A stretch of 64,000 nucleotides of DNA, from assembly GCA_963555705.1 (NCBI GenBank), contig OY743184.1, positions 26,188,639 through 26,252,638 of the forward strand, written 5' to 3'. Positions 12,951 to 64,000 of the stretch are shown here, piece by piece (the stretch's first letter is position 1; every line of letters begins with the position of its first letter). The notes beneath the pieces are model-generated. The model did no database searches. It had not been told where the DNA came from and saw nothing but the letters and a program-made list of their open reading frames with translations. The position numbers and the translations under genes were made by a program. Source of the DNA: Ligustrum vulgare (Eukaryota; Streptophyta; Magnoliopsida; Lamiales; Oleaceae).

Positions 12951-12959
12951 GTGAGTGGG

Positions 12960-13742: not shown

Positions 13743-13769
13743 AGGATCAAAGAGTTTGGGAGCAAGAAT

Positions 13770-13781
13770 GCTCTGATACCA
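13770..13781 (-). promoter_or_regulatory. Primer-binding site of the copia element
   Basis: Minus strand TGGTATCAGAGC, complementary to the 3' end of initiator tRNA-Met, immediately next to the 5' LTR. Confidence 0.92.
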
Positions 13782-14012
13782 TAAAAGAAGAAGAAGAAGA
13801 AGAAGAAGAAGAAAAAATATAATGAAAGAATCCATTTCATTAAAACTGTGAAGATGTATATATACAAAACGATGAGCTAACTAACTTTAATCAGATAACT
13901 ATGCTAAATATAAATAAAGATTACATGAGATAAATTACAATAAATACAAAAATGTAACTTAAATAAATAAGGAAATAAAATAATAACAAACCATTTATTT
14001 TAATTCCCAATA
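13782..14012 (-). repeat. Right (5') LTR of the copia element
   Basis: 231 bases containing a GAA microsatellite at its left end and an extra 'agattacatgagataa' block absent from the left LTR. Confidence 0.88.
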
Positions 14013-43054: not shown

Positions 43055-43568
43055 TGTAGGATTATTGGCTTAGAACCAAACAAACAAGTCCTTAAAAATG
43101 CTATCTTGTTTAACATAAACTTGTGTGTCATTTCGATGATTACTTAAAGTAATCGGGGGCAAAAATAAAAAAAAGGGTTTACGACCATTAAAACCATTTG
43201 GAAAATAATTTTTAGTAGTTGCATAAATTTGTTAAAATGTTTTACAAGTTAATTTTTAGACTTTGGTATTTTTACCAAAAAGTGGTCAAGTTTTATAAAA
43301 TGGGTGCAACAAGTTTTTTCAAAGTGTGGTGCATGTTTCTCTAGAAAAGGGTTTTTTCTAGTTTTCTCTCTAAAGATATAACTTGTGGTTTTTCTTCAAA
43401 ATACTCAAGAAAAAGTTTATCTTCTTGATTGGATTGAGTGTGCATGATTTTGATTTCCCAATGGTATGGTTGTGAGCCTACATTTCGATAATTGAATTCT
43501 TTGATTTTTCCATTCTTGAAGAATTATTTTTGGTGTTCTTGATTTAAAATCAAGGTGAAGATCCTACA
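43055..43568 (+). repeat. Left (5') LTR of element 3
   Basis: 514 bases, TGTAGG...CCTACA; homologous to 54764-55276. Confidence 0.92.
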
Positions 43569-44294: not shown

Positions 44295-44299
44295 CCTGC

Positions 44300-47200
44300 T
44301 GTAGCGCCCCGAGTTCCGTATACCCGATTCACTACGTCATTTTCTGTCTAAATTTTTCGAATAATATTTTTGCGGAAGAAATAATTGAAATTCATTTTTT
44401 GGCAACATTAAATAAACTGTAATGGCCGCTAAAATTGAAAACATTTATGAAACCATTTGAAATAGTAAATCGAACCATTAATATTGTAAAGAAATTGCCA
44501 ATATCATAATTTCTCAAATAAATGAACTTCTCTAAATTATTCGATTGTTTGGAAAATACGGAAATCATTAACGTCAAACTTTCAACCGTTCAACGATTAT
44601 TGCCACCATCATTCATCGCTCGCCACCGTCTCCGAAATCTGCAAAACTGTTAAAAGTAGGGTGAGTATTTCATGGGGGAAATACTCAGTAGACTCATCGC
44701 GAATTAATTTAATTTATAAGATGATTAAACACATAAATCCCTGCTCTTTATAAAACGGGCATTGATAGAGCTTCTTTATAAAACTGCTCTTGATAAAACT
44801 CATATTGTGCATTACAGCACGGGACATATTTTGCAAATCATAGGCTCTTTGAAAATAGCTCTTTGAAAACCATATACTTATAAAAACATTTTAATTATGC
44901 CAAGCATAATTTCTTTTGAAAGCATAACATAAGATAGGATTGAAATCCTCATAAACATAAGAAGACACAAGAACTTTACCGAACTTAGGTGGCAAGAATT
45001 CTTATGCAGTAAAATCATAATAACAGTAAGTTTTCATCATAACATAGGATAATATCGAAATCCTCATAAACATAAGAATTTTACCGAACTTAGGTGGTAA
45101 GAATTCTTATGTAGTAAGTATACCAAGCATAATTTTCTGAAATTCATAGGGATCAATTGCATCATAACATAAGATAGGATCGAAATCCTCATAAACATAT
45201 GCGACAGGAATTTTACCGAACTTAGGTGGCAAATCCTCATAAACATATGGAAACATAGGAATTTTACCGAACTTCGTGGCAAATCCTCATAAACATAGGA
45301 GACACAAGAATGTTACCGAACTTAGGTGGCAAGAATTCTTATGTGTAGCGCTACTAAAACTCCGGTCCCCTTAACATATCATAACTTATCATATGGGACC
45401 CAAAACAATCTTGGTAGATTGATTTCATAGCAATGATCCAAAAAAACATTTTCGTGAAGCATAGGGTATACTTACTTTTCGTAAAAACATAAAGTATATT
45501 TTCTTTTCATAAAAACATACTTACTTTTCATAACAACATAAGGTATATTTACCTTTCATAAAAACATACTTGTTTTTCTTAAAAATTGACTTTCACAAGT
45601 CACATGACATTCATATGAAATCATAATTTAAATCAATTAATAAGTGCGAGTCTACCTCAAATCCGACGAGTGCAAAGTTGAGCGGGAATGACTTCAATTT
45701 CTTTAAATTCTCCGTACGCTTCGTCTTAGCCAATAAGTCACTTTAGTCTATCGAATATATAGTTCAAAATGATAAATTATAATTTGAGGACTAAAATTGA
45801 TGTTTTGAAAGTTGAGGGACTAAAATGAATACTTTTGAAAGTTCAGGGACTAAAATAGATACTTTGAAAGTTGAGGGATTAAAATGAATACTTTTGAAAG
45901 TTCAGGGACTAAAATAGATATTTTGAAAGTTGAGGGATTAAAATGAATACTTTTGAAACTTGGGCTTAAAATCAAATTAATAAAATCAGCAGGGACTGAA
46001 ATAATAGATTTTGAAAATGAAAGGGCTGATATTGATAAGTTTAAAACTAAAAGGACTGAACTAAAACATTTTCAAACTTGAGGACTAATTTGCAAATTCT
46101 GAAAAATTAAAATATATTCTCAGATTTTCTTTCTCTCTCTCGACACTATTCTCTCTCTCACTCAGCTCGCACGATCAGAGAAGAAAAGGGCGGAGGAGGC
46201 GATTCAAGCCAAAATCCGACCTTCAGCCGGTGACTCGCCGGCGCAACACCGGCGCTGGGTGCGGCAAAAGGTGGTTAAATAGGGTTGTCAAGTTTGGGTA
46301 GATTTGGTACAATTTTTTGGTGCGAAATCGAAGAGTGACCCGAGGCTAGGGTTCGCGATTTGGAGTTGCTGATTCACAGTGAAGGGAACGGCGATCGAGG
46401 TAGGTAATAGATCTATTTCTGATTTTTTTTTTTTGGGTTTTATTTGATTTGGTGATGGCTATCCGGTGGTGTTGATTGATGATGATGATTGTTTGATTTG
46501 GAGATTAAAATGGTGAGCGGAGGTTCGATTCTTGGTCGACCTCTGAAGTGAGGCAGTGGACTTGGATATTACGGATTCAGAAATGGTGGTGGGTGGAAAA
46601 GTGTGGTTGTGGCTGAGTGGTGATCGATCTTGATGATGATGATGGGGTTGCTGGAAGAAACTGCAAGATTGGTTGAAGATGTCGATGAATTGTGTGTTTG
46701 AATATGGTGATGATAGTGCCGGTTGGCAGGGGTTCTTAGGTAATTGGCTGATGGTGAGTTTGGGATTACTGGAAGTGGTGAGGGCTGTTCTTGATTCGGT
46801 GGCTTAGAATTCAAATTGAGTAGAGGCAGTGATGGAGCTGACCGGTGGTGACTGGATTGAGGAATTGCAGGTGATAACATTTTGGTAGTAATTGTGGTTG
46901 ATCAGTGGTGATTGTTGGCATTGATTGTAGTCTGCAGGTGGTTTGATCTTGAAATGGATGGTATAGACTGTGGAGTGGTGATACTGCAGATTCTGGGAAT
47001 GGAGGTGGATTGGCTGTTGCGGTGATTGGGAAACTAGTTGCAGAGAATTTGGGTGGTAGGTATATTTGATGATAATCCTGGTGTTTAGCTTTGTTGGTAT
47101 TGCAGTGATTGTGGTGTTTAACACAGTGATGGTGATGATGAATGAAGCAGCTCGGCTATAAAGAAGAGTGTTTGAGGGTAAAGGAAAATGCACATGGGGA

Positions 47201-47624
47201 GGGAATATGATGATGGTGGGGAATATCATAATTGAAAGGGAATAATTGAGTGAATATTATCATAATCATGATGATGGAGGAGGAGCAAAACTTGTAGAAT
47301 AAATTTTGATTATGATAAGAATTGGACTAACTTTGATCAAGAAGCGTATTTAAAACAGACATATTTTGGATTGAAAATAAATTTGAGAATAAATAAATTT
47401 GGAATTTAAAATGATTTTGAAAATAATACTTTAAATAAATAATTAAATAACATAATTTTAGAAATTCGGATTTTAATTTAAAATCGAACAAATTCGATAT
47501 TTCTTGACTTGGCTAGACGAATCCGTCGCGGCATTAATTTCAAAATAATAAATGAAATAGTAGCGACACAATTTTCTAAATATTAAAATAATTATTTATT
47601 GCATAAAAATTCTGGATCGCTATA
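44300..47624 (-). repeat. Left (3') LTR of element A
   Basis: 3325 bases. Compared with 50983-54305 I found only a poly-T length difference (12 against 10, near 46430) and one G/A change near 44675. It contains internal short repeats (aatcctcataaacata with ttaccgaacttaggtggcaa, 44940-45330; 'aaagttgagggactaaaatg' series 45780-45960) and a CT-rich/GC-rich stretch at 46120-46260. ORFs on its minus strand are duplicated in the other LTR and have no recognised domain. Confidence 0.95.
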
Positions 47625-47640
47625 ATCTTTCCTCCTTAAA
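47625..47640 (-). promoter_or_regulatory. Polypurine tract of element A
   Basis: The minus strand reads AAGGAGGAAAGAT immediately before the 3' LTR. Confidence 0.75.
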
Positions 47641-48163
47641 ATAATTTCGTCCTCGAAATTAAACTTACTTAATCTTATAATTTCTGAATACTTAATCAGA
47701 ATATCTTCTTCTTATCATCGAATATTCTCAAAATAATCAAAACAATTCCTGAATATTTTCTCTACGTAAAATACCCAAACATATCAACAATATCATCAAC
47801 TTATCTTTCCAATATTTGTAACCCAAAATTCAGTAAACAAATATCTCCCAAAACTAAGATTCTATACTTAAATGTCACCACATTTCCTGCAAAGTATTTC
47901 TTTCACTTGTATATACGTATGAATTCTGATTCAATACAGTACTCATTTTACTTTCCACGTATCATCACACTATACCAAGATTATCATTATTAAAACAAAA
48001 TATCAGTACCCATAATCCAAGAAAATATTCCAAATCTCCAATCAAATCTCCTTTATCGATAAAATTTAACAGCGCATTACTTCTTGTCTCCTCTTTTCAT
48101 TAAAATAATCCTGCGCTTTCTTGCTGGTCACAACATCACGCGGATTCACTCAGATCCTTTGCG

Positions 48164-48174
48164 CTTTTAAATAG
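48164..48174 (+). promoter_or_regulatory. TATA-like box before the nucleic-acid-binding-protein ORF (element A)
   Basis: CTTTTAAATAG, 33 bases before the start codon at 48207; the same box is kept at the equivalent place in element B (63535-63545). A transcript starting 25-30 bases downstream would have an extremely short leader, so the start site needs mapping. Confidence 0.45.
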
Positions 48175-48206
48175 TTCATGCTGAGAAGAGGTTGAATCAT
48201 CAAACA

Positions 48207-48758
48207 ATGGATATCATTCTTTCTAACATTCGCAAGTATTATTCCAGTCTTCCTATGAATGATCTGAGAAAGATCTATAAAATAAGGCTCGAAAGATTGA
48301 GGTTGCTAATGGCTCATGATATTCCAGAAGATGTTCGCTGGTTGATAGAAGCAAAGGTTCGACTATCTGGTGAATTACCATCAACATTTCCAAAACATAT
48401 GCCTGGTTTAGGCAAAAGCACGTTCGCAAAGAAACGAAGAGCAAAAAGACTGGGTGGTTGCTACAAATGTGCTCGTTGGAACTGTAATACACGTTGCAAA
48501 TCAGTAGGATATTCTTCTACTAATCGGGATGATAAAATCGAATTCATAAAGGGTGGACTGAGTAAGGAGTCTTTGGATGATATTCGACTGACTCTTGAGA
48601 CGCACCCAAGTGGTTATGTACAACGTGAACTTCTCTCCTTATACGCTCAGTTTAACGAGGACAAAAATCGTTATAGTCTCCAAAATATAATATCGAAAGA
48701 TCCTGTTTGTCAGTCTGTTTTACAAAATGAGGCTTCTGGCAGTTCAGCAATAATATAA
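48207..48758 (+). CDS. Basic cysteine-rich protein, carlavirus-type nucleic-acid-binding-protein-like (element A)
   Basis: 183 codons, intact and intronless. I start at the ATG at 48207, which is conserved in the element B copy; an upstream in-frame extension to 48192 begins with TTG and is not credible. About residues 1-55 are helical and charged. The centre has GLGKSTFAKKRRAKRLGGCY, an arginine/lysine-rich patch running into a Cys cluster (C-x2-C-x4-C-x3-C). The combination of a Ser-Thr-aromatic-Ala basic patch followed by a Cys-x2-Cys finger resembles the nucleic-acid-binding (cysteine-rich) proteins of carlaviruses and relatives; the Cys spacing after the first pair differs. The rest (about 110-183) has no recognised match. 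Role inferred: nucleic-acid binding, possibly nuclear. It lies 377 bases upstream of the LOG ORF on the same strand, antisense to the retroelement. Confidence 0.7.
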   Translation: MDIILSNIRKYYSSLPMNDLRKIYKIRLERLRLLMAHDIPEDVRWLIEAKVRLSGELPSTFPKHMPGLGKSTFAKKRRAKRLGGCYKCARWNCNTRCKSVGYSSTNRDDKIEFIKGGLSKESLDDIRLTLETHPSGYVQRELLSLYAQFNEDKNRYSLQNIISKDPVCQSVLQNEASGSSAII

Positions 48759-49004
48759 GGTAAATCTTTTTAAAATATTTTGCTGCTTTCTTTCACGCGT
48801 TTTGGAAATAAAATATATTTTTCTTTTCTCGAGGTTTGATAAAGCTGGAAATAAATATATTTTCCTTTCTCGAGGTTTGATAAAGCTGGAAATAAATATT
48901 AAATCGCCGAAAGGTGACAGCCTCGATACGATAAAAATATTCAAAAGTGGGCTGATTTTGTCAAAAGTAAATCTTTACTTTTTCAGAATCAATCAAAAAA
49001 CAGT

Positions 49005-49006
<2 letters not shown>

Positions 49007-49047
<41 letters not shown>
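49007..49047. repeat. Poly-T tract between the two cassette ORFs
   Basis: About 41 T on the plus strand, directly before the LOG TATA-like box. It is absent from element B, so it is a later expansion. Confidence 0.9.
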
Positions 49048-49051
49048 CCGG

Positions 49052-49061
49052 CTTTAAATAG
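49052..49061 (+). promoter_or_regulatory. TATA-like box of the LOG ORF (element A)
   Basis: CTTTAAATAG, about 75 bases before the LOG start codon, conserved in element B (62727-62736) together with the following leader (gccaaacatatttcatag). Spacing is suitable for a Pol II TATA box with a ~45-base leader. Confidence 0.6.
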
Positions 49062-49135
49062 CCAAACATATTTCATAGTTCAGGCATCCCAAAATCACAT
49101 CTTCTTCGTAAGTTTTCCCTTCTTTACTATCAAAG

Positions 49136-49789
49136 ATGGAAGCACCAAAACTTCGACAGATCAAAACTATTTGTGTATTTTGTGGATCAAAAGTAGGGAA
49201 AGGCTTCGGTTATCTAGAAGCGGCTGTAGATCTTGGAAAGAAACTGGGGGAAAAAGGTATCACTCTTGTATATGGGGGCGGTAGCAGTGGTCTAATGGGT
49301 TGTGTTTCCCAATCTGCTCTTGCAGAGAAATCAAAAGTAATCGGTGTCATACCTGTCCCTTTGGTAGATGTTGCAGGAAAAACACGAGGGCATGAAGTTC
49401 AAACCTTATCCATCCATGAACGCATAACTTGTATGCTATATGGTTCTGATGCCTTTATAGCCCTGCCCGGAGGTTTTGGTACCTTAGAAGAAATTTTTAA
49501 CATTACCTCGTGGGCTCAACTAGATCTCCATACTAAGCCTATTGGGCTTCTGAATGTTAACAATTTCTTTGATGGTTTGTTAACCTTTCTTGATTATGCT
49601 GTGGAACAGGGATTCATCTCTCCATTTTCCAGAAGGCTTCTTATTTCTGCTCCTACTATTGATGAACTACTGGATAAGCTGCAGTCATATATCTCAATAC
49701 AAGATCCAGCAGGGGTTAAGATAGATTGGTCGCAAGGAAGGGGAATCAAGCGAAAATGGAGTCCGGTTAATGTAAATTTAACTCTTTGA
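49136..49789 (+). CDS. LOG-like: LOG-type cytokinin riboside 5'-monophosphate phosphoribohydrolase (element A)
   Basis: 217 residues, intact and intronless, with a good start context (AAAGATGGA). Family features: CVFCGSKVGKG near residue 13, VYGGGSSGLMG (45-55), HERITCM (94-100) and the signature PGGFGTLEE (111-119), followed by SWAQLDLHTKPIGLLNV. LOG enzymes release active cytokinin bases (such as isopentenyladenine) from nucleoside monophosphates in the cytosol and nucleus. The Arg and both Glu of the active-site motifs are present, so activity is plausible. Divergent points: the HERK motif reads HERI, and the tail (DWSQGRGIKRKWSPVNVNL) is unlike typical plant LOGs. Plant LOG genes usually have several introns; this copy has none, suggesting capture as cDNA. 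It sits in the interior of an LTR element, antisense to it, with its own TATA-like box. Confidence 0.9.
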   Translation: MEAPKLRQIKTICVFCGSKVGKGFGYLEAAVDLGKKLGEKGITLVYGGGSSGLMGCVSQSALAEKSKVIGVIPVPLVDVAGKTRGHEVQTLSIHERITCMLYGSDAFIALPGGFGTLEEIFNITSWAQLDLHTKPIGLLNVNNFFDGLLTFLDYAVEQGFISPFSRRLLISAPTIDELLDKLQSYISIQDPAGVKIDWSQGRGIKRKWSPVNVNLTL

Positions 49790-49798
49790 ATCTTAGAA

Positions 49799-50012
49799 TA
49801 GGTGGGGGTAGAGTACGGAGTATTCTCACTCTCGAGACACCCCTCCATTTACTAGGATTTCCTTAATGTTTAAATCTTGTGTGTACTTCAAAGATTCCAG
49901 GTGGTAGATTACGGAGTATTCTTACTCTCGAAACACACCTCTTTGAAGGTTTCTTTATTTCCTCAAAAGATCAGAGGTGGTAGGATACGGCTACTCCGGA
50001 AACACATCTCTC
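49799..50012 (+). ncRNA. Three tandem stem-loop-like repeats in the LOG 3' region (element A)
   Basis: Imperfect units at 49800-49855, 49899-49944 and 49973-50010, each starting (a)ggtgg.tag..tacgg and ending cgaaacacacctc or similar. The outer parts can pair (AGGTG with CACCT), and unit 2 has an inner hairpin GAGTA-TTCT-TACTC. The block is almost unchanged in element B (61775-61989). It may be a structured 3' UTR element; no RNA family was recognised. Confidence 0.5.
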
Positions 50013-50967
50013 ATTCTGAGGATCTTTCCATGTTTTTCTCTTATGCTTTCGTGTGTTTCATGTATTTCCTTTCCAGTGTGACTCTTGTGTGTTCTCCTTA
50101 TGAGAAAATAATAAAATCTCTGCTATCATCTACTAAATCTCGTTTGTGATGTAAATGATCTTGCATGTCTAACCTTAATTCCTTTAGTGGATGCTTATCA
50201 TATTATGCTCTTAATTCCAAATGATAAAATTCTGGATAGAGTCTCCCTTGTAATTTGGACTTATCCAAACCATAAGCATACTTCATAACTCACAATAATA
50301 AATAACTCCACATTTGATCACAACGATCTAAAAATATTGAAAATGATTCCAACACTTCAATATCATCAAAATATCTCATAATTCAATTCATAATTCCTCA
50401 ACATAACAATTTCAAATCATATTTTTCAATATCACAATATCACTTCCTTCCATACCTTAATTGGCTCAAAAGTTATTCCTACTTATAAATATATGCCATA
50501 AATCATATTCCCAAAATTTATTCACAAAGCCAAACTTCATAATAAATTTCTCTTCAACATAGAGGCATAATAAATTAACTCAACATAATATCCATTACTT
50601 AATTCTCAATAAAATCATATTATTCCCATTATGCTCAACACTCGTTTTCTTTTAAAAAATTTCTCATACTCATACATTAAAGCATATAAGTTATGACAAA
50701 GCATAACAACATCATTATTTTCGAAGAAATACATTCTTATTTCTCATAAATCATAAGTATCCGAAATACTCTTCATTCTTTCTCATAAATCAATAAAATG
50801 AGTATTCGAAATACTGAAATAACTTTAAACATCATAAACTTCTTTACCTCGGAGTTGGTGGAACGAATGATGGCAGTGGCAATCTTCATCAATAAAATTT
50901 TTATAATGGAAAATATTTCTTGAAAATTCTTTTTGAAAATTTTTCCAGTCTACAGAAACGCAGACTA
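50013..50967. other. Element A 5' non-coding interior
   Basis: No gene; a 90-codon frame over 49877-50149 overlaps the stem-loop repeats and is considered a shadow. AT-rich from 50280 to 50940. Confidence 0.6.
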
Positions 50968-50979
50968 GCTCTGATACCA
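50968..50979 (-). promoter_or_regulatory. Primer-binding site of element A
   Basis: Minus strand TGGTATCAGAGC, three bases from the 5' LTR at 50983. Confidence 0.93.
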
Positions 50980-50982
50980 ACT

Positions 50983-53900
50983 TGTAGCGCCCCGAGTTCC
51001 GTATACCCGATTCACTACGTCATTTTCTGTCTAAATTTTTCGAATAATATTTTTGCGGAAGAAATAATTGAAATTCATTTTTTGGCAACATTAAATAAAC
51101 TGTAATGGCCGCTAAAATTGAAAACATTTATGAAACCATTTGAAATAGTAAATCGAACCATTAATATTGTAAAGAAATTGCCAATATCATAATTTCTCAA
51201 ATAAATGAACTTCTCTAAATTATTCGATTGTTTGGAAAATACGGAAATCATTAACGTCAAACTTTCAACCGTTCAACGATTATTGCCACCATCATTCATC
51301 GCTCGCCACCGTCTCCGAAATCTGCAAAACTGTTAAAAGTAGGGTGAGTATTTCATGGGGAAAATACTCAGTAGACTCATCGCGAATTAATTTAATTTAT
51401 AAGATGATTAAACACATAAATCCCTGCTCTTTATAAAACGGGCATTGATAGAGCTTCTTTATAAAACTGCTCTTGATAAAACTCATATTGTGCATTACAG
51501 CACGGGACATATTTTGCAAATCATAGGCTCTTTGAAAATAGCTCTTTGAAAACCATATACTTATAAAAACATTTTAATTATGCCAAGCATAATTTCTTTT
51601 GAAAGCATAACATAAGATAGGATTGAAATCCTCATAAACATAAGAAGACACAAGAACTTTACCGAACTTAGGTGGCAAGAATTCTTATGCAGTAAAATCA
51701 TAATAACAGTAAGTTTTCATCATAACATAGGATAATATCGAAATCCTCATAAACATAAGAATTTTACCGAACTTAGGTGGTAAGAATTCTTATGTAGTAA
51801 GTATACCAAGCATAATTTTCTGAAATTCATAGGGATCAATTGCATCATAACATAAGATAGGATCGAAATCCTCATAAACATATGCGACAGGAATTTTACC
51901 GAACTTAGGTGGCAAATCCTCATAAACATATGGAAACATAGGAATTTTACCGAACTTCGTGGCAAATCCTCATAAACATAGGAGACACAAGAATGTTACC
52001 GAACTTAGGTGGCAAGAATTCTTATGTGTAGCGCTACTAAAACTCCGGTCCCCTTAACATATCATAACTTATCATATGGGACCCAAAACAATCTTGGTAG
52101 ATTGATTTCATAGCAATGATCCAAAAAAACATTTTCGTGAAGCATAGGGTATACTTACTTTTCGTAAAAACATAAAGTATATTTTCTTTTCATAAAAACA
52201 TACTTACTTTTCATAACAACATAAGGTATATTTACCTTTCATAAAAACATACTTGTTTTTCTTAAAAATTGACTTTCACAAGTCACATGACATTCATATG
52301 AAATCATAATTTAAATCAATTAATAAGTGCGAGTCTACCTCAAATCCGACGAGTGCAAAGTTGAGCGGGAATGACTTCAATTTCTTTAAATTCTCCGTAC
52401 GCTTCGTCTTAGCCAATAAGTCACTTTAGTCTATCGAATATATAGTTCAAAATGATAAATTATAATTTGAGGACTAAAATTGATGTTTTGAAAGTTGAGG
52501 GACTAAAATGAATACTTTTGAAAGTTCAGGGACTAAAATAGATACTTTGAAAGTTGAGGGATTAAAATGAATACTTTTGAAAGTTCAGGGACTAAAATAG
52601 ATATTTTGAAAGTTGAGGGATTAAAATGAATACTTTTGAAACTTGGGCTTAAAATCAAATTAATAAAATCAGCAGGGACTGAAATAATAGATTTTGAAAA
52701 TGAAAGGGCTGATATTGATAAGTTTAAAACTAAAAGGACTGAACTAAAACATTTTCAAACTTGAGGACTAATTTGCAAATTCTGAAAAATTAAAATATAT
52801 TCTCAGATTTTCTTTCTCTCTCTCGACACTATTCTCTCTCTCACTCAGCTCGCACGATCAGAGAAGAAAAGGGCGGAGGAGGCGATTCAAGCCAAAATCC
52901 GACCTTCAGCCGGTGACTCGCCGGCGCAACACCGGCGCTGGGTGCGGCAAAAGGTGGTTAAATAGGGTTGTCAAGTTTGGGTAGATTTGGTACAATTTTT
53001 TGGTGCGAAATCGAAGAGTGACCCGAGGCTAGGGTTCGCGATTTGGAGTTGCTGATTCACAGTGAAGGGAACGGCGATCGAGGTAGGTAATAGATCTATT
53101 TCTGATTTTTTTTTTGGGTTTTATTTGATTTGGTGATGGCTATCCGGTGGTGTTGATTGATGATGATGATTGTTTGATTTGGAGATTAAAATGGTGAGCG
53201 GAGGTTCGATTCTTGGTCGACCTCTGAAGTGAGGCAGTGGACTTGGATATTACGGATTCAGAAATGGTGGTGGGTGGAAAAGTGTGGTTGTGGCTGAGTG
53301 GTGATCGATCTTGATGATGATGATGGGGTTGCTGGAAGAAACTGCAAGATTGGTTGAAGATGTCGATGAATTGTGTGTTTGAATATGGTGATGATAGTGC
53401 CGGTTGGCAGGGGTTCTTAGGTAATTGGCTGATGGTGAGTTTGGGATTACTGGAAGTGGTGAGGGCTGTTCTTGATTCGGTGGCTTAGAATTCAAATTGA
53501 GTAGAGGCAGTGATGGAGCTGACCGGTGGTGACTGGATTGAGGAATTGCAGGTGATAACATTTTGGTAGTAATTGTGGTTGATCAGTGGTGATTGTTGGC
53601 ATTGATTGTAGTCTGCAGGTGGTTTGATCTTGAAATGGATGGTATAGACTGTGGAGTGGTGATACTGCAGATTCTGGGAATGGAGGTGGATTGGCTGTTG
53701 CGGTGATTGGGAAACTAGTTGCAGAGAATTTGGGTGGTAGGTATATTTGATGATAATCCTGGTGTTTAGCTTTGTTGGTATTGCAGTGATTGTGGTGTTT
53801 AACACAGTGATGGTGATGATGAATGAAGCAGCTCGGCTATAAAGAAGAGTGTTTGAGGGTAAAGGAAAATGCACATGGGGAGGGAATATGATGATGGTGG

Positions 53901-54305
53901 GGAATATCATAATTGAAAGGGAATAATTGAGTGAATATTATCATAATCATGATGATGGAGGAGGAGCAAAACTTGTAGAATAAATTTTGATTATGATAAG
54001 AATTGGACTAACTTTGATCAAGAAGCGTATTTAAAACAGACATATTTTGGATTGAAAATAAATTTGAGAATAAATAAATTTGGAATTTAAAATGATTTTG
54101 AAAATAATACTTTAAATAAATAATTAAATAACATAATTTTAGAAATTCGGATTTTAATTTAAAATCGAACAAATTCGATATTTCTTGACTTGGCTAGACG
54201 AATCCGTCGCGGCATTAATTTCAAAATAATAAATGAAATAGTAGCGACACAATTTTCTAAATATTAAAATAATTATTTATTGCATAAAAATTCTGGATCG
54301 CTATA
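50983..54305 (-). repeat. Right (5') LTR of element A
   Basis: 3323 bases, nearly identical to 44300-47624. The first hundred bases match the start of the other LTR (TGTAGCGCCCCGAGTTCCG). Confidence 0.95.
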
Positions 54306-54763
54306 CCTGCAGAGTCCATATTCGAAGTCCGTTTCACCAAATTCAATTTGGATATTGTTTGAGGTTTGCAAATGGTTTTTTGCATGATTCTTTCGTTTGA
54401 TTTTTTGAGATTAAACTGGTGCGTTGAAGACTCCTATTGTAGTTGTACGAACATTTAGGATAATTTCTGAACTCGGGGCTTTGTGTATAAATCGGGAAAG
54501 GGCTAGAAGTTGGGGATTCCTTGAGGTTCGGGTTTGACAAGATTAGGTTTTAATCTTGGGTGTATTGAATTTTACAAGATTATCTATTAATCTTGGGTTT
54601 GATAGGAGATCTTCTTGCTGATTTGACGTGAGAATTATATTTACGGGGATATTTTGACAAGATTAGGTGTTAATCTTGGGGGTATGCAAGGTTACAAGAT
54701 TGAGTATTAATCTTGGGTAAATTTAGATTAGGTAGTAGTTTGGTTTAAGCCAAGGTGAAGGAA
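54306..54763 (+). other. Interior of element 3 (right part)
   Basis: About 450 bases with three dispersed copies of 'tacaagatt...ttaatcttgggt' variants (around 54570, 54660, 54700), ending in the purine tract before the right LTR. No gene. Confidence 0.6.
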
Positions 54764-55276
54764 TGTAGGATTATTGGCTTAGAACCAAACAAACAAGCCC
54801 TTAGAAATGCTATCTTGTTTAACATAAACTTGTGTGGCATTTCGATGATTACTTAAAGTAATCGGGGTCAAAAATAAAAAAAGGGCTTACTACCATTAAA
54901 ACCATTTGGGAAATAATTTTTAGTAGTTGCATAAATTTGTTAAAATGTTTTACAAATTAATTTTTAGACTTTGGTATTTTTACCAAAAGGTGGTCAAGGT
55001 TTAGAAAATGGGTGCAACAAGTTTTTTCAAAGTGTGGTGCATATTTCTTTAGAAAAGGGTTTTTTCTAGTTTTCACTCTAAAGATATAACTTGTGGTTTT
55101 TCTTCAAAAGAGTCAAGAAAGAGTTTATCTTCTTGATTGGATTGAGTGTGCATGATTTTGATTTCCCAATGGTATGGTTGTGAGCCTACATTTCGATAAT
55201 TGAATTTTTTGATTTTGGCATTCTTGAAGAATTATTCATGGTGTTCTTGATTTAAAATCAAGTTGAAGATCCTACA
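54764..55276 (+). repeat. Right (3') LTR of element 3
   Basis: 513 bases, TGTAGG...CCTACA, partner of 43055-43568. Confidence 0.92.
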
Positions 55277-56868: not shown

Positions 56869-57735
56869 CACTAGTACAGAAAGTGGAAAAGGTGTCGGTT
56901 GTAAAAGGGCATAGGCGTCGGTTGTATGGGCGACGCCTATGACGCAGACGCCTAAAGTTCGACTTTATGCGTCGATTTTTTTATAACCGACGCTTAAAGT
57001 TGAAAAAAATAAATAAATAAATAAATAATTTACTTTTAGGCGTCGGTTCTAACTTTAGAACCGACGCCTAAAGTATTTTTTTTTTTTTTTTTGTTTCGTT
57101 TTCGTTTTCACACCTGCAGTGACCTAAGGCCGCTGCAGGTAATAGCCTGCAGTGACCCAGGCCGCTACAGGTCATGACCTACAGTCATTTGGACATGGCC
57201 CGCGATGACCTGAACATTTTCCACATGCGCATCATCAAATATACATAATAACATTGATTTCTTGCCCTGCCTTCTTAATTTTCTTACACATAGTCGGCCC
57301 TCTTGTCCTTTTTGTTTGGGCAGTACTATGATCGTCTGAAGAACTTGAAGACTCCGCCATTATATTGAAATAATATAACACGTACCTGCACATATGACAA
57401 TTAATATTCATGTTAGAAATATATATATATATATATCAAATTATTGTTATCAAGATCACAAATAATATTAACAATGTATAGCGCATATATAAAGAATACA
57501 AGAAAGTTTAATAGTTGGAATCAAATAAGATAATTTACGACCTATATGTGAAGATATAATTAAAAAGATTAAAAGTTTACAAGGATGATTGTATTTTATA
57601 TAGTTATTTTTTTAGTATGGTCAATTTTGTACGAGTGACAGTCACCTTAAATTATAATTTTCATTTTTTATTTGTAAAATTTTACGAAAATTTCGGCAGA
57701 GTCTCCTCTGTAAATTGGACTTAGCCAACCTATAG
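56869..57735 (+). mobile_element. CACTA-type transposon fragment (one end)
   Basis: Begins CACTAGTACAGAAAG, typical of plant CACTA ends, then subterminal repeats of 'aggcgtcggtt' in both orientations (56900-57075). On the minus strand around 57360-57230 is MAESSSSSDDHSTAQTKRTR followed by GPTMCKKIKKAG, resembling the N terminus of CACTA accessory/transposase-24-type proteins. No opposite end is visible; element B adjoins at 57736. Confidence 0.65.
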
Positions 57736-58019
57736 TGTAGCGACCAAGAATTTTTACGCGATTAATAATTATTTTAATAGAAAATCGTGTCGCTACTATT
57801 TCACCCATTTTTATTAAGTTAACGCCACGACGTATTCGTATAGCCAAGTCAAGAAATAATCGAGATCGTTCGATTTTAAATTAAATTCCGAATTTCTAAA
57901 AATATCTCCATTCTCTTGATTTAAAGTATATTAAGTCTAAGTACTTAATTCAATGTTATCCCAATATTTATTTATACAAAAATTACTTTTATTATTTAAA
58001 TTAAGAAAATATATGCAAG

Positions 58020-58520
58020 CATGAGAGGTTCCATTATATATAATAATTATGAGAATCTTAATTTAATAAATATGGAAAAGTATATAAATGGTTGATAGAT
58101 TCCATTATATGTAATCATGAAGAGCATAATATTTGTATAAATATGGAAAAGTATATGAATGAATTATATACTCCATTATATATAATCATGAAGAGCATAA
58201 TATTTGTATAAATATGGAAAAGTATATGAATGATTGATAAGACTCCATTATATGTAATCATGAAGAGCATAATATTTGTATAAATATGGAAAAGTATATG
58301 AATGAATTATATACTCCATTATATATAATCATGAAGAGCATAATATTTGTATAAATATGGAAAAGTATATGAATGATTGATAAGACTCCATTATATGTAA
58401 TCATGAAGAGCATAATATTTGTATAAATATGGAAAAGTATATGAATGATTTATATACTCCATTATATATAATCATGAAGAGCATATTATTTGTATAAATA
58501 TGGAAAAGTATATGAATGGT
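58020..58520. repeat. ~71-base tandem array in LTR B
   Basis: Six or seven units of 'atcatgaagagcataatatt' with 'tgtataaatatggaaaagta' and 'tatgaatga'; two alternating variants (tatatactcc and tgataagactcc) give a double period of about 141 bases. Confidence 0.9.
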
Positions 58521-58744
58521 GCTTTACTTTAAGAAAAGGATGTGTTAAAATTAATAGAATTGAATGATTATGTTTACAATATGCCAACTTTATACATCTA
58601 TTTAAACCCATCTCTTTTACACACAACTCTACACATATACACTTATTTCCAATCTCTTGACAAAATCCACAAGTAAGAGAAATTCAAGGTGGTCAAGAAA
58701 GTTTTGGTCCATTTACTACTACACTTCATTTTAATCTTTTAAAA

Positions 58745-59212
58745 GGTAAGTATATCTTATGTTTTTATGAAAAGTAAGTATGTTTTTATGAAAGGTAAAT
58801 ACACCTTATGTTTTTATGAAAAGTAAGTATGTTTTTATGACAAGTAAGTATATCTTATGTTTTTATGAAAAGTAAGTATGTTTTTATGAAAGGTAAATAC
58901 ACCTTATGTTTTTATGAAAAGTAAGTATGTTTTTATGACAAGTAAGTATATCTTATGTTTTTATGAAAAGTAAGTATGTTTTTATGAAAGGTAAATACAC
59001 CTTATGTTTTTATGAAAAGTAAGTATGTTTTTATGACAAGTAAGTATATCTTATGTTTTTATGAAAAGTAAGTATGTTTTTATGAAAAGTAAATACACCT
59101 TATGTTTTTATAAAAAGTAAGTATGTTTTTATGACAAGTAAGTATACCTTATGTTTTTATGAAAAGTAAGTATGTTTTTATGACAAGTAAGTATATCTTA
59201 TGTTTTTATGAA
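58745..59212. repeat. ~99-base tandem array in LTR B
   Basis: About five units built from the phrases 'atgtttttatgaaaagtaag' and 'aggtaaatacaccttatg'. A single or partial version occurs in the element A LTRs (around 45480-45590), so the array is an expansion specific to B. Confidence 0.9.
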
Positions 59213-59728
59213 AATGTTTGGATCATTGCTATGAAATCAATCTCACAAGATTGTTATGGGTTCCATATGATATGTTTATGATTATGCTAAGGGGACCGGA
59301 GTTTAGTAGCGCTACACATAAGAATTCTTGCCATTTAAGTTCGGTAAAATTCTTGTGTCTCCCTATGTTTATGAATATTTCAATCCTATCCTATGTTATG
59401 ATGAAAACGATCCATATGCTTTCAAAAGAAAATTTATGCTTGGTATACTTATTGGGATTTTATAAATCTCACTCCACGATATTTACCATTTTCAGATAAT
59501 TGAAGGTTCGAGGCGGTCAACATGGAATTGGCAAAAGTGGTTAAGATTGATGAGATAATTATGTTGAACTTTATGTAAGAAAATTATGTTCTATTTTTAT
59601 TCACAAATAAAATTATGGGATTCTAATTATTCTTTTGAATAATTTTACATTACTATTTAAGTCTCGATAATATGATATGAGTCACTTTTTGTGGCACTCG
59701 AATGGTCGAGAATTCGAGTCGTCACAGT

Positions 59729-59740
59729 TGGTATCAGAGC
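59729..59740 (+). promoter_or_regulatory. Primer-binding site of element B
   Basis: TGGTATCAGAGC, two bases after the 5' LTR. Confidence 0.93.
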
Positions 59741-61700
59741 AAAGAGTTTTAAAAATGATTCTGTAGATTTTTGAAATTTTATTTCTTTAAAAAAAAAAAA
59801 AAAATCACTATTCATGTGAACAGTAAAACGACGTGCTATTCATGATGAACAGTGAACGAAATCACTATTCATTATAAAAAAAAAGTTGAATTTTCACATG
59901 TCAAGTATGGTTATGATTTTGAAAAGCATGATGAAATTTGATGTGCGAATTTCAAGGACAAAATTCATTTTAAGTAAGGGAGTTTGTAATGTCCTGAAAA
60001 TTTTATGGAATATAATTAGTTAGTGATATGATGTTTATATTGATGTCTTTGATAAATTTCTAGAAGTTCGGGGACTAAAGGAAAAATAAGATTTGACGAT
60101 AAATTTTATTTGGGTTAAGTTATTAATTATTGATGGGAAGATAATTACTATATCGATATTGGATTTGTTTTGAAGACTGTGATTAATTAGGAATTATGAT
60201 TCAAGAAAATGTTGATTTGGATACAACCACATTAAATTATTGTTGATTAAAGGAAAATAAGATTATATGAAATATTTTAACTCATCACTCTACTATGTCA
60301 CTCTCCACGTATTGACTCTTCGAACCAGGTATGTTATATGCTTTGCAAGTCATTTACGATTTTATTAAGACATGTTAAGTATGAAATCTTCATATGTTAT
60401 GAATCTTTATGTGTTACACATAATATACATGTCAAGTATGATATAAATTGATAGAAGACTCAATTTTTTTATTCTTTTCAATGTAGAATCATGAGACAGA
60501 GAGGATATTTATATGAATTTTGGTGCATATTAAGCTTAGTAAGATTGACTCAATTAGAAATTAAGTTGGGTTGTAACTTTTGCCCAAAATATATGGAATA
60601 ATATATTAAACAAACAAAATTGATAATGAATTCGTACAATAATTTATCCCTTTATCACTACCTTTGTGTAAAAACAAGGGAAAAACTGTGGATGGTTATT
60701 AGTACTTCCTCTTCAAGTTTCAATTTTCGGTTCAATAATTTATCCCTTTATCACTACCTTTGCTTAAAAGCAAGGAAAAACTGTGGATGATTATTGGTAC
60801 CACTCTTCAAGTTTCAATTCTGAAAAAAAAAAAAAAAAAAAAATTCAGAAAGAAAAGAAAGAAAGAGAACGGGTGTTGAGCATAATGGGAATAATATGAC
60901 TTAAGAATGATTTTCAAAATAATTGTTGTCCTCGAGTTTAGAAATCATAAACCTTAAATGGACTTTGCATAATTGATTTTAGACATGGCATTAAGTATGA
61001 GAAGTCAATAGAAATGATTAGAAATATGTTCAGATTATCTATCATTTAGATTTAATGAGAAATAGCGAGCCAATTTTATGAATTTTTATGAGATGTTAAG
61101 ATTATAAGTGATATAATTTTAATGAGACTTTTATGAGAAGCATTATGAAGTTAGAGATTTAAAGATTTGGTTATTGGGAATTAAGTAATGGATATTATGT
61201 TGAGTAAGTGAATTATGCCTCTATATTGAAGAGAAATTTATTATGAACTTTGGCCTTGTGATTAAATTTTGGGAATATGATTTATGACTTATAAATATAA
61301 GTATGAGTAATCTTTTGAGCCAATTAAGGTATTGAAGGAAGTGATATTGTGATATTGACGACTATGATTTGAAATTTCTATGTTGAGGAATTATGAATTG
61401 ATTTTCTGGAATATTTTTTTATGATATTGAAGTTTGATGAAATTGTGGTCAATTTTTAGATCGTTGTGATCAAATGTGGAATTATTTATTATTGTGAGTT
61501 ATGAAGTATGCTTACGGTTTGAATAAGTCCAAATTTCAAAGGAAACTCTGCTTAGAATTTTATCGTTTGGAATTAAGAGCATAGTATGGTATGCAATCAC
61601 TAAGAGAATTGAGGTTAGACATGCAAATTCATTTACATCACAAACGAGATTTAGTAGATGATAACAGAGATATTTATTATTTTCTCGTAAGGAGAACACA
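59741..61700. other. Element B 5' non-coding interior
   Basis: No gene. It includes a ~90-base imperfect direct repeat (60635-60820, around 'tatccctttatcactacctt'), an A-homopolymer near 60823-60842, and from 61080 onward a diverged match to 50150-50850 of element A (inverted). Confidence 0.6.
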
Positions 61701-61774
61701 CAAGAGTCACATTGGAAAGAAATACATGAAACACGCAAAATCAAAAGAAAGCAACATGGGAAATTCCTCAAATT

Positions 61775-61989
61775 GAGAGATGTGTTTCCGGAGTAGCCGT
61801 ATCCTACCACCTCTGACCTTTTGAGGAAATAAAGAAACCTTCAAAGAGGTGTGTTTCGAGAGTAAGAATACTCCGTAATCTACCACCTGGAACCTTTGAG
61901 GTACACACAAGATTTAAACATTAAGGAAATCCTAGGAAATTAGAGGGGTGTCTCGAGAGTAAGAATACTCCGTACTCTACCCCCACCTA
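61775..61989 (-). ncRNA. Three tandem stem-loop-like repeats (element B)
   Basis: Inverted counterpart of 49799-50012, with the three units and their spacing retained. Unit 1 in B reads ...gagtattcttactc..., restoring the inner hairpin that is imperfect in A. Confidence 0.5.
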
Positions 61990-61998
61990 TTCTAAGAT

Positions 61999-62652
61999 TC
62001 ATAAAGTTAAGTTTACATTAACCGGACTCCATTTTCGCTTGATTCCCCTTCCTTGCGACCAATCTATCTTAACCCCTGCTGGATCTTGTATTGAGATATA
62101 TGACTGCAGCTTATCCAGTAGTTCATCAATAGTAGGAGCAGAAATAAGGAGCCTTCTGGAAAATGGAGAGATGAATCCCTGTTCCACAGCATAATCAAGA
62201 AAGGTTAACAAGCCATCAAAGAAATTGTTAACATTCAGAAGCCCAATAGGCTTAGTATGGAGATCTAGTTGAGCCCACGAGGTAATGTTAAAGATTTCTT
62301 CTAAGGTACCAAAACCTCCGGGCAGGGCTATAAAGGCATCAGAACCATATAGCATACAAGTTATGCGTTCATGGATGGATAATGTTTGAACTTCATGCCC
62401 TTGTGTTATGCCTGCAACATCTACCAAAGGGACAGGTATGACACCGATTACTTTTGATTTCTCTGCAAGAGCAGATTGGGAAACACAACCCATTAGACCA
62501 CTGCTACCACCCCCATACACAAGAGTGATACCTTTTTCCCCCAGTTTCTTTCCAAGATCTACGGCCGCTTCTAGATAACTGAAGCCTTTCCCCACTTTTG
62601 ATCCACAAAATACACAAATAGTTTTGATCTGTCGAAGTTTTGGTGCTTCCAT
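61999..62652 (-). CDS. LOG-like: LOG-type cytokinin riboside 5'-monophosphate phosphoribohydrolase (element B)
   Basis: 217 residues, intact, intronless. It differs from the element A protein at three positions only: G25 to S, K82 to I and R84 to Q. The active-site signature PGGFGTLEE and the HERITCM block are unchanged. Several synonymous differences accompany these, so the reading frame has been kept while the surrounding element diverged. Position and spacing within the element are the mirror of copy A: antisense to the retroelement, downstream of the virus-like ORF, with a TATA-like box about 75 bases upstream. Same expected reaction: release of free cytokinin base from the riboside monophosphate. 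Confidence 0.9.
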   Translation of the reverse strand: MEAPKLRQIKTICVFCGSKVGKGFSYLEAAVDLGKKLGEKGITLVYGGGSSGLMGCVSQSALAEKSKVIGVIPVPLVDVAGITQGHEVQTLSIHERITCMLYGSDAFIALPGGFGTLEEIFNITSWAQLDLHTKPIGLLNVNNFFDGLLTFLDYAVEQGFISPFSRRLLISAPTIDELLDKLQSYISIQDPAGVKIDWSQGRGIKRKWSPVNVNLTL

Positions 62653-62726
62653 CTTTGATAGTATAGAAGAGAAAACTTACGAAGAAGATGTGATTTTGGG
62701 ATGCCTGAACTATGAAATATGTTTGG

Positions 62727-62736
62727 CTATTTAAAG
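62727..62736 (-). promoter_or_regulatory. TATA-like box of the LOG ORF (element B)
   Basis: Minus strand CTTTAAATAG in the same context as in element A; the poly-T found in A is missing here. Confidence 0.6.
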
Positions 62737-62948
62737 CCGAAAAAATTTACTGTTTTTGATTGATTATGAAAAAGTAAAGATTTACTTTTGTCAAAATCGG
62801 CCAACTTTTGACTGTTTTACCAAAGATATCACCTTTCGGTGATTTATTTCCAGCTTTATCAAAACTCGAGAAAGGAAAATATATTTTATTTCCAAAACGC
62901 GTGAAAGAAAACAGCAAAATATTTTAAATGTGTATCAAGAGATTTACC

Positions 62949-63500
62949 TTATATCATTGTTGAACTGCCAGAAGCCTCATTTTGTAAAACAGACTGGCAA
63001 ACAGGATCTTTTGCTATTATATTTTGGAGACTATAACGATTTTTGTCCTCGTTAAACTGAGCGTATAAGGAGAGAAGTTCACGTTGCACATAACCACTTG
63101 GGTGCGTCTCAAGAGTCAGTCGAATATCATCCAAAGACTCCTTACTCAGTCCACCCTTTATGAATTTGATTTTATCATCCCGATTAGTAGAAGAATATCC
63201 TACTGTTTTGCAACGAGTATCACAGTTCCAACGAGCACATTTGTAGCAACCATTCAGCCTTTTTGCTCTTCGTTTCTTTGCGAAGGTGCTTTTGCCTAAA
63301 CCAGGCATGTGCTTTGGAAATGTCATAGGTAATTCACCAGATAGTCGAACCTTTGCTTCGATCAACCAGCGAACATCTTCTGAAACACCATGAGCCATCA
63401 GCAACCTCAATCTTTCGAGTCTTATTCGATAAATTTTCCTCAGATCATTCATTGGAAGACTGGAATAATACTTGCGAATGTTTGTAAGAATGATATCCAT
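62949..63500 (-). CDS. Basic cysteine-rich protein, carlavirus-type nucleic-acid-binding-protein-like (element B)
   Basis: 183 codons from the ATG at 63500, the start shared with copy A. An in-frame upstream ATG at 63548 would add 16 residues but overlaps the TATA-like box, so I prefer 63500. The basic patch (GKSTFAKKRRAKRLNGCYKC) and the four-Cys cluster are conserved. I count about 13 differences from copy A in 183 residues, most conservative, with no frame damage. The gap to the LOG start is 296 bases (377 in A, the difference being mostly the poly-T). Function unproven; nucleic-acid binding is inferred. Confidence 0.7.
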   Translation of the reverse strand: MDIILTNIRKYYSSLPMNDLRKIYRIRLERLRLLMAHGVSEDVRWLIEAKVRLSGELPMTFPKHMPGLGKSTFAKKRRAKRLNGCYKCARWNCDTRCKTVGYSSTNRDDKIKFIKGGLSKESLDDIRLTLETHPSGYVQRELLSLYAQFNEDKNRYSLQNIIAKDPVCQSVLQNEASGSSTMI

Positions 63501-63534
63501 GTTTTTGATGGATCTAACCTCTTCCCAGCATGAA

Positions 63535-63545
63535 CTATTTAAAAG
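63535..63545 (-). promoter_or_regulatory. TATA-like box before the virus-like ORF (element B)
   Basis: Minus strand CTTTTAAATAG, same spacing to the start codon (about 34 bases) as in element A. Confidence 0.45.
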
Positions 63546-63548
63546 CAT

Positions 63549-64000
63549 TAAGGATCGGAGGGAATCCGCGTGATATTGATTCCAGCAAGAAAGCGCGGAA
63601 TAGAATAATGGAAAAGAGGGAACAAGAGTTTATACGCCGTTTACTTTCTTGATAAAAGGAAGATTTGATGATGACGGGATTTGAGATATGGAATATTTTC
63701 TTGGATTTTGGGTACTGATATTTTGATATAATAATCAAGGTATAGAAATAATACGGGGATACGTGAAAGTGAAATAAGGACTGTATTGAATCAGGATTAA
63801 TAAGTTTGTGCAAGTGAAAGGAATACCTTACGGGAAATGTTATGATATTTGAGTTAAGAATTTTAATTATTTGGGAGATATTTGTTTATTGAATTTTGCA
63901 GAAATTTTGGGTTACAAATATTGGAAAGATAAACTGATGATTATGTTGATATGTGAATAACATGTTTGGGTATATTACATAGAGAATATTCAGGTAATCG
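63549..64000. other. Element B 3' interior (incomplete)
   Basis: Non-coding; homologous in inverted sense to about 47740-48160 of element A. The ORF at 63535-63813 is a shadow. The window ends before the polypurine tract. Confidence 0.6.

What the first reader, a model, noticed from the sequence alone, without database searches (positions are those of the whole stretch)
44300..54305. LTR element whose only genes are an antisense LOG enzyme and a virus-like nucleic-acid-binding protein
The element is complete (TSD, two LTRs, primer site, polypurine tract) but its 3.36 kb interior lacks gag-pol and encodes two intact plus-strand ORFs opposite to the element's own sense. One is a cytokinin-activating LOG-type enzyme; the other resembles the cysteine-rich nucleic-acid-binding proteins of carlavirus-like RNA viruses. 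Extra antisense ORFs are known in some Ty3/gypsy (Tat-lineage) elements, but I know of none carrying this pair. A mobile element that could alter local cytokinin levels would be a new kind of cargo.
Basis: partly seen in the sequence, partly recalled or inferred. Interest (0 to 1): 0.95.

Follow-up and report, generated by a model that had tools for sequence, protein, structure and literature searches.

The report
Jumping genes carrying a plant-hormone enzyme
Thousands of copies of a jumping DNA element in this plant genome carry, instead of recognisable replication genes, a preserved pair of genes: one like cytokinin-activating enzymes but with an unusual tail, and one resembling plant-virus silencing suppressors, which suggests that the element may manipulate its host cell.

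Summary
Window 44300-54305 is a complete LTR element (5-bp duplication, PBS, PPT, LTRs 99.9% alike) whose 3.36-kb interior carries two antisense genes: a type-I LOG and a protein above Pfam's cut-offs for carlavirus-type nucleic-acid-binding proteins (NABP). The family is large and recently active: 2,545 PBS-LTR junction matches, 5,305 LOG-motif matches, perfect 5-bp duplications in 9 of 10 insertions examined. Both ORFs are open in 49 of 49 copies compared (30 chosen by LOG protein) and evolve under purifying selection (window against one second-family copy: dN/dS 0.15 NABP, 0.07 LOG). No gag-pol was recognised. A second LTR family with different LTRs, PBS and PPT carries the same 2.1-kb cassette in the same antisense orientation, so the cassette is portable. 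Some members have lost it. Protein relatives occur in asterids and rosids; the sampled LOGs form one clade, and 97 of the 120 best end in an EAR-like motif (105 in a basic cluster) against 0 (and 1) of 120 cellular LOGs; here the motif is degenerate (VxLxL). LOG domains in Ty3/gypsy elements were reported before (Citrus, Populus). I found no report of the pair, the tail, or two gag-pol-less families sharing them. Function is inferred, not shown.

The parts
44295..44299 (.). left target-site duplication CCTGC
44300..47624 (-). 3' LTR (element sense is minus); ends TGTAGCGC...TCGCTATA as read on plus
47625..47639 (-). polypurine tract (TTAAGGAGGAAAGAT on minus)
   Evidence: sequence
47901..50034 (+). 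portable cassette: the only part of the interior aligning (75-77% DNA) with the second LTR family (L058-L060; alignments end at 50024-50038)
48166..48173 (+). TTTAAATA, TATA-like, 41 bases before the NABP ATG; same offset in L059
48207..48758 (+). NABP ORF, 183 aa; Viral_NABP / Carla_C4; basic KKRRAKR then C-x2-C-x4-C-x3-C
49053..49060 (+). TTTAAATA, TATA-like, 83 bases before the LOG ATG; offset 84 in L059
49136..49789 (+). LOG ORF, 217 aa; type-I LOG with PGGxGTxxE and R96; C-terminal basic + EAR-like tail (IKRKWSPVNVNLTL)
49790..50034 (+). conserved 3' flank of LOG with three ~40-nt related repeats (GGTGGTAG..TACGG..GAAACACA)
50110..50115 (+). AATAAA, possible poly(A) signal of the antisense unit (not seen in the 436 bases after LOG in L059)
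50968..50979 (-). primer binding site (TGGTATCAGAGC on minus)
   Evidence: sequence
50983..54305 (-). 5' LTR, 99.9% identical to the 3' LTR
54306..54310 (.). right target-site duplication CCTGC
57735..64000 (-). second, more diverged copy in opposite orientation, running off the window; its LOG 61999-62652 and NABP 62949-63500 are both intact

Best explanation
Shown: this is a high-copy, recently active LTR retrotransposon family without recognisable gag-pol, whose only recognised genes are an antisense two-gene cassette (virus-type cysteine-rich NABP plus LOG), each with its own TATA-like box. A second LTR family with unrelated LTRs carries the same cassette, and both genes are kept by purifying selection. 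Inferred: the element is moved by Gag-Pol supplied in trans by an autonomous retrotransposon, and it pays its way with accessory proteins that alter the host cell. The NABP would, like carlavirus CRPs, suppress RNA silencing and act in the nucleus on nucleic acid. The LOG would raise active cytokinin locally and, through its basic and EAR-like C-terminal tail (LxLxL in most relatives, VxLxL here), enter the nucleus and bind TOPLESS-type corepressors. The expected gain is transposition in dividing, meristematic or pre-germline cells where silencing is blunted.
For: Family and mobility: copy numbers; perfect 5-bp TSDs in 9 of 10 insertions, LTR divergence 0-0.31%, two pairs identical. Second family. 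Selection: both ORFs open in 49 of 49 copies; pN/pS 0.10 (LOG) and 0.22 (NABP) in 19 DNA-chosen copies; dN/dS 0.071 and 0.15 between window and L059, while the spacer between the genes is only 49-57% identical. LOG fold and motif; PGGxGTxxE in 107 of 120 element-type and 108 of 120 cellular LOGs. Tail: EAR-like end in 97 of 120 element-type against 0 of 120 cellular LOGs, basic cluster 105 against 1, both in 93 against 0; one clade, 99/96 support. NABP: Pfam above cut-off; viral CRPs described as silencing suppressors, and CVB p12 also as a transcription factor inducing hyperplasia (PMC12172455 passages; PMC8839810 passages). Pairing in other plants: three Orobanche gene models hold an NABP followed by part of a LOG (P0017, P0018, P0022); equal contig lengths above 1,400 bases for 5 NABP/LOG pairs, null mean 0.49, 0 of 5,000 as many.
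Against: No expression, enzyme or silencing data. Cassette-less deletion derivatives exist (L061, L062), so the cassette is not strictly needed in cis. The EAR motif is degenerate in this genome (VNLTL / VNLSL) and absent from 23 of 120 relatives, including the most basal Xanthoceras rows. The lysine after the conserved arginine (RKA), kept in 120 of 120 cellular LOGs, survives in only 8 of 120 element-type LOGs and is lost here, so activity cannot be taken for granted. The NABP zinc-finger spacing differs from the carlavirus pattern, its model is poor (pTM 0.32), and no Foldseek match to viral proteins passes E 0.001. No autonomous partner was found. That the relatives in other plants lie in elements is inferred.
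Confidence: 0.5

Rival explanations
1. Passive cargo: the cassette is held only because its DNA or RNA (packaging signals, leader) is needed, and the ORFs are bystanders of very recent amplification from a few masters.
For: The stretch from LOG to the PBS, untranslated leader included, is about 97-99.6% conserved in the copies (77-97% in the leaders of L063-L066); amplification is recent; cassette-less derivatives persist.
Against: Synonymous changes exceed nonsynonymous ones per site within and between families; the spacer diverges while both ORFs stay conserved; two families with different LTRs and leaders keep the ORFs.
Confidence: 0.07
2. The NABP is the working part, as silencing suppressor; LOG works mainly as a nuclear scaffold protein (corepressor recruitment) or in another reaction, not as a cytokinin enzyme.
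For: EAR-like tail and basic cluster frequent in relatives but not in cellular LOGs; the lysine of the cellular RKA stretch is lost in 112 of 120 element-type LOGs.
Against: PGGxGTxxE and R96 kept, fold within 0.9 A of an AMP-bound LOG, dN/dS of LOG lower than of NABP.
Confidence: 0.2
3. Antisense regulation: the plus-strand unit serves to make antisense or double-stranded RNA that regulates the element, as suggested in general for antisense ORFs (PMC7264820, parts 1 and 2).
For: Both genes are antisense in two families; separate TATA-like boxes.
Against: RNA-level function does not explain low dN/dS; the review itself treats it as compatible with a protein function.
Confidence: 0.08
4. The cassette comes from a betaflexivirus-like RNA virus or other virus that had captured a plant LOG, and reached the retrotransposons as a unit.
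For: NABP resembles alpha/betaflexivirus CRPs; the LOG ORF carries no intron.
Against: No confirmed relative in the viral contig collection for either protein; no LOG-bearing flexivirus known to me (recalled); carlavirus CRP spacing differs.
Confidence: 0.15

Closest known systems
Ty3/gypsy elements with a YgdH/LOG domain in Citrus sinensis, C. clementina and Populus trichocarpa (PMC9289625; Steinbauerova et al. 2011 as cited there)
   Same: LTR retrotransposons carrying a LOG-family ORF; Populus also holds element-type LOG and NABP proteins.
   Different: Reported as domain hits in gypsy consensuses; no NABP partner, EAR-like tail or gag-pol-less two-gene form appears in the passages I read.
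Antisense extra ORFs of Grande, RIRE2, Retand, PvRetro13 (review PMC7264820)
   Same: Conserved antisense genes inside LTR elements, of unknown role; Grande's has its own promoter.
   Different: Those sit between pol and the 3' LTR of elements with gag-pol and, by the review, have no clear protein relatives; here no gag-pol was recognised and both proteins have known relatives.
Carlavirus cysteine-rich proteins (CVB p12, SPCFV NaBP)
   Same: Pfam Viral_NABP and Carla_C4, basic stretch directly before a four-cysteine cluster.
   Different: C-x2-C-x4-C-x3-C instead of C-X2-C-X12-C-X4-C (the latter from PMC8839810); a long conserved C-terminal half; carried by a retrotransposon.
Plant cytokinin-activating LOG enzymes (LOG1, LOG3, LOG8)
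   Same: Type-I LOG fold and PGGxGTxxE motif.
   Different: Separate clade (44-47% identical to the 11 cellular LOGs), intronless here, basic plus EAR-like tail, RKA lysine lost, thousands of copies.
LARD / TRIM-type non-autonomous LTR elements (recalled)
   Same: LTRs, PBS, PPT, no gag-pol, high copy number.
   Different: Those are defined by non-coding interiors; here two selected genes are present.

Membership tests
LTR retrotransposon (non-autonomous) | two LTRs, 5-bp TSD, PBS beside 5' LTR, PPT beside 3' LTR | tested here: met
   9 of 10 insertions with perfect TSD, one right end not located
LTR retrotransposon (autonomous) | gag and pol in the interior | tested here: not met
   no such ORF or Pfam match in the window element; fetched copies carry the same interior
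Ty3/gypsy chromovirus | reverse transcriptase/integrase phylogeny | not testable with these tools
   no pol in the element; the PBS type alone is only suggestive
LARD (recalled definition) | non-coding interior | tested here: not met
   two ORFs under purifying selection
Type-I LOG enzyme | LOG fold with PGGxGTxxE and the conserved arginine | tested here: met
Type-I LOG enzyme | phosphoribohydrolase activity on cytokinin nucleotides | not testable with these tools
   needs an assay; the RKA lysine of cellular LOGs is missing
Carlavirus-type CRP/NABP | Pfam PF05515 / PF01623 at gathering score | tested here: met
   30.9 bits (cut-off 23) and 26.8 bits (cut-off 20.9) in the window protein; also the second window copy and L059
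Carlavirus-type CRP/NABP | C-X2-C-X12-C-X4-C after a basic stretch | tested here: not met
   spacing C-x2-C-x4-C-x3-C in 103 of 120 relatives; a basic stretch before the cluster in 95 of 120
Carlavirus-type CRP/NABP | same fold as viral CRPs | tested here: inconclusive
   model pTM 0.32; 31 matches, best E 0.097; the 11 named ones among the first 12 are all from betaflexiviruses (virus family recalled)
EAR-motif protein | LxLxL repression motif | tested here: inconclusive
   93 of 120 relatives have LxLxL in the last 30 residues, 0 of 120 cellular LOGs; this genome's copies read VxLxL
Grande/Retand-type antisense aORF elements | antisense ORF between pol and 3' LTR of an element with gag-pol | tested here: not met
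   no pol recognised

The most novel reading that the evidence does not exclude
The 2.1-kb NABP-LOG cassette is a selfish accessory operon in its own right. It moves between unrelated LTR retrotransposon families across eudicots and turns gag-pol-less parasites into host-manipulating elements: a virus-type silencing suppressor and transcription regulator plus a nuclear, corepressor-binding cytokinin enzyme that push cells to divide and lower silencing, a counterpart of viral oncogenes or Agrobacterium's cytokinin gene, carried by a genome's own transposons in thousands of copies.
Probability: 0.3. Interest if true: 0.96.

Novelty: new variant of a known kind. Interest (0 to 1): 0.86.

Why it matters
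Antisense extra genes of plant retrotransposons have had no assigned role (PMC7264820). Here the two genes have recognisable relatives (cytokinin activation; virus-type silencing suppression), clear purifying selection and two separate carriers, so a long-standing question becomes testable: do transposons manipulate host hormones and silencing to spread? It also warns genome annotators: many element-type 'LOG' and 'LOGL' gene models in some plants (38 of the 120 listed LOG relatives come from Reevesia pubescens alone) are probably transposon genes (inference), which matters for cytokinin gene-family studies.

Tried and rejected
Single-copy host locus: rejected. Chance LTR pairing: rejected by TSDs in other copies. 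Autonomous partner: sampled at PBS-LTR junctions without a strict cassette hit (L061-L066, 6 of 32, for family 1; L067-L068, 2 of 25 TGTTGTAAAAC junctions on C1, for family 2); the 1-1.7 kb read inward showed the usual leaders or deletions and no gag that I could recognise (a Pfam check of L067/L068 failed), so the partner is unknown. Host cellular LOG genes: the search with an Arabidopsis LOG stretch was swamped by element copies, so the source gene in this genome was not found. Viral relatives: none in viral contigs (4 and 7 pattern matches, none confirmed). RNA element in the conserved 3' flank: no Rfam family at gathering score (for L059 and L047); in the window one sub-threshold snoRNA match, E 0.86, elsewhere; folding z-score -0.30: nothing shown. 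Fold of NABP: low confidence, so viral fold matches are only suggestive. Bias: 30 of the 49 copies were brought in by identical LOG protein, so LOG selection was recomputed on the 19 others (0.10). The NABP-LOG contig-length test over all lengths was weaker (8 coincidences of 64 LOG contigs, null mean 2.6, 19 of 5,000 as many) than above 1,400 bases. Papers: all ten searches used; Steinbauerova 2011 and Lukhovitskaya 2013 (PMC3634699) are not held: what I say of them comes from other papers' passages or recall. Seen: PMC7264820 parts 1 and 2 of 3; passages only of PMC9289625, PMC12172455, PMC8839810, PMC6317226; the rest as search listings.
Full report

The family. A DNA search with the cassette scored 40 of 2,528 candidates: 32 at 99-100% and 8 at 94-97% identity. 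A protein search with LOG scored 150 of 9,447 candidates: all 150 identical and stop-free, all on C1-C4. With NABP, 150 of 8,795 were scored, all stop-free, at 99-100% identity. Motif counts over the whole genome: LOG 5,305 (this may pool both families described below), NABP 3,695, PBS-LTR junction of this family 2,545, controls 0. All 10 fetched interiors (9 loci, one of them an LTR-int-LTR-int-LTR array) hold both genes in the same place. Of 10 insertions (these 9 loci and the window's), 9 have perfect 5-bp duplications, the array a single one around it; in the tenth (C8:20.97 Mb) the right end was not located. LTR pairs differ by 0-0.31% (the highest value from that tenth, on a cut LTR), so the family moved recently, although LTRs of different copies align only in parts (70-99%). 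Tandem spacing of 6-7 kb is frequent: 10 of 99 neighbouring pairs among the first 100 junctions. A second, more diverged copy with both ORFs open lies in the window itself, opposite strand, 57735-64000.

Not every member carries the cassette. Of 100 zero-mismatch junctions on C1, 45 had strict hits for both genes, 23 for one, 32 for neither, in lists that hold only perfect matches. Two of the 32 were read past the cassette's place, and both are deletion derivatives (L061, L062); four more (L063-L066), read for 1 kb, show the usual leader and cannot tell.

A second carrier. Three loci chosen (L058-L060) are a different LTR element: LTRs of 174-199 bases beginning TGTTRTAAAAC and, in L058 and L060, ending TATAACA; PPT AAGGGGGAG; a different PBS; 5-bp duplication GCAAG in L060, 4 of 5 bases in L058, none seen at the ends used for L059. 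Only about 47901-50034 of the window aligns, at 75-77%, in the same antisense orientation. L059 keeps both ORFs; L058 has a frameshift in NABP and a stop in LOG; L060's LOG stops near its end. Its junction pattern occurs 3,645 times. Of 38 perfect junctions on C1 with the TGTTATAAAAC end, 25 have a LOG of the second set (capped lists) in the expected place and none of the first set; of 25 with TGTTGTAAAAC, 1; of the first 30 first-family junctions, none has a second-set LOG. So two LTR families each amplified their own version. Neither shows gag-pol in what I read.

Selection. Both ORFs are open in 49 of 49 copies (37 distinct DNA sequences each). Thirty of these had been chosen by LOG protein identity; in the other 19, pN/pS is 0.10 for LOG and 0.22 for NABP, and for NABP in the 30 it is 0.18. 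All were chosen by similarity, so decayed copies are under-represented. Between the window and L059 dS is 0.47 (LOG) and 0.80 (NABP), dN/dS 0.071 and 0.15. The spacer is 49-57% identical, the ORFs 79-94% per 100 bases, and the 200 bases after LOG 82-84%. Both genes have a TTTAAATA at the same distance from the ATG in both families (41, and 83/84 bases).

Relatives elsewhere. NABP: 352 relatives at E <= 0.01, the 120 listed all with Carla_C4; named hosts Orobanche, Striga, Populus, Xanthoceras, Acer; three Orobanche gene models hold an NABP followed by part of a LOG. LOG: the 120 best include Reevesia (38), Xanthoceras, Populus, Diplodiscus, Diospyros, Primulina, Parasponia. Reevesia and Xanthoceras are rosids, Orobanche and Diospyros asterids. 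Contig lengths coincide for NABP and LOG clusters more than expected. That each of these proteins lies in an element is inferred from copy number and pairing, not shown. In a tree of 55 rows the 42 element-type LOGs form one group (99/96) and the 12 cellular plant LOGs another (98/95); the bootstrap had not fully settled and the bacterial row is a long branch. The cellular set is drawn from the best matches to Arabidopsis LOG3 plus one LOG8 stretch, so a closer cellular subfamily could be missing.

The tail. 97 of 120 element-type LOGs end in an EAR-like motif ([LVIMF]xLx[LI] within two residues of the C-terminus), 93 have strict LxLxL in the last 30 residues, 105 a basic cluster in the last 25; of 120 cellular LOGs 0, 0 and 1. 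Motif and cluster together: 93 against 0. The window's protein ends VNVNLTL, a VxLxL. In the model this tail is disordered (residues 197-217). EAR motifs recruit TOPLESS-type corepressors (established knowledge, recalled). A result against a plain enzyme reading: the RKA lysine present in 120 of 120 cellular LOGs is kept in only 8 of 120 element-type LOGs.

How it probably works. Shown: mobility, no recognisable gag-pol, two carriers, selection, LOG fold. Inferred: proteins supplied in trans move it; NABP dampens silencing as viral CRPs do (SPCFV NaBP and CVB p12 are described as silencing suppressors, CVB p12 also as a transcription factor inducing hyperplasia; PMC12172455 passages); LOG raises active cytokinin and may act in the nucleus through its tail. 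Both would favour dividing cells with weak silencing, where new insertions reach the next generation. Why selection acts in cis when such proteins could serve any copy is not explained; frequent founder events from single masters, or local action near the donor, are possible.

Compared with what is known. LOG/YgdH domains in Citrus and Populus gypsy elements are on record (PMC9289625 passages). Antisense extra ORFs are known in Grande and others, function unknown (PMC7264820 parts 1-2). Ten searches of the paper library brought up no report of the NABP-LOG pair, of the EAR-like tail, or of NABP in retrotransposons (not all aimed at these points); subscription papers are mostly not held, so this is weak evidence of absence. 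I file it as a new variant of a known kind.

Noticed in passing
G000, e.g. C3:27779900-27797600, C2:76948967-76962680, C5:20669350-20683660: Frequent LTR-int-LTR-int-LTR arrays (by spacing of about 6.5-7 kb; sequence read only for C3). The C3 array has one 5-bp duplication (ATTCT) around the whole array, which fits either unequal recombination or insertion of a concatemer.
   Followed up: partly
window 49790-50034; L058-L060 matching stretch: Three related ~40-nt repeats (GGTGGTAG..TACGG..GAAACACA) directly after LOG, conserved at 82-84% between the two LTR families although untranslated; no Rfam match, no folding signal.
   Followed up: partly
window 43055-43568 and 54764-55276: A ~514-base direct repeat (95%) brackets the element and its flanks, suggesting insertion inside an older repeat or LTR element.
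   Followed up: no
window 31597-32864 (+): Overlapping ORFs with DUF4371 domains, probably a decayed DNA transposon (label recalled).
   Followed up: no
window 12887-13876 and 15191-15793 (-): copia-type gag and a separate reverse-transcriptase fragment: remnants of other retroelements.
   Followed up: no
P0212, P0239, P0122 (Xanthoceras) in the tree: The most basal element-type LOGs lack the EAR-like motif (P0212 and P0239 end in a basic stretch), hinting that the motif was gained after the basic tail, or lost there.
   Followed up: no
window 48819-48899 and 49009-49047: Two 40-base tandem copies (98%) and a long T run between the genes; in the 12 loci where a script could measure it the run is 19-43 T long.
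   Followed up: partly
element-type LOGs P0121-P0240: The lysine next to the conserved arginine (RKA in 120 of 120 cellular LOGs) is missing in 112 of 120 element-type LOGs: a changed active-site neighbourhood whose effect is unknown.
   Followed up: partly
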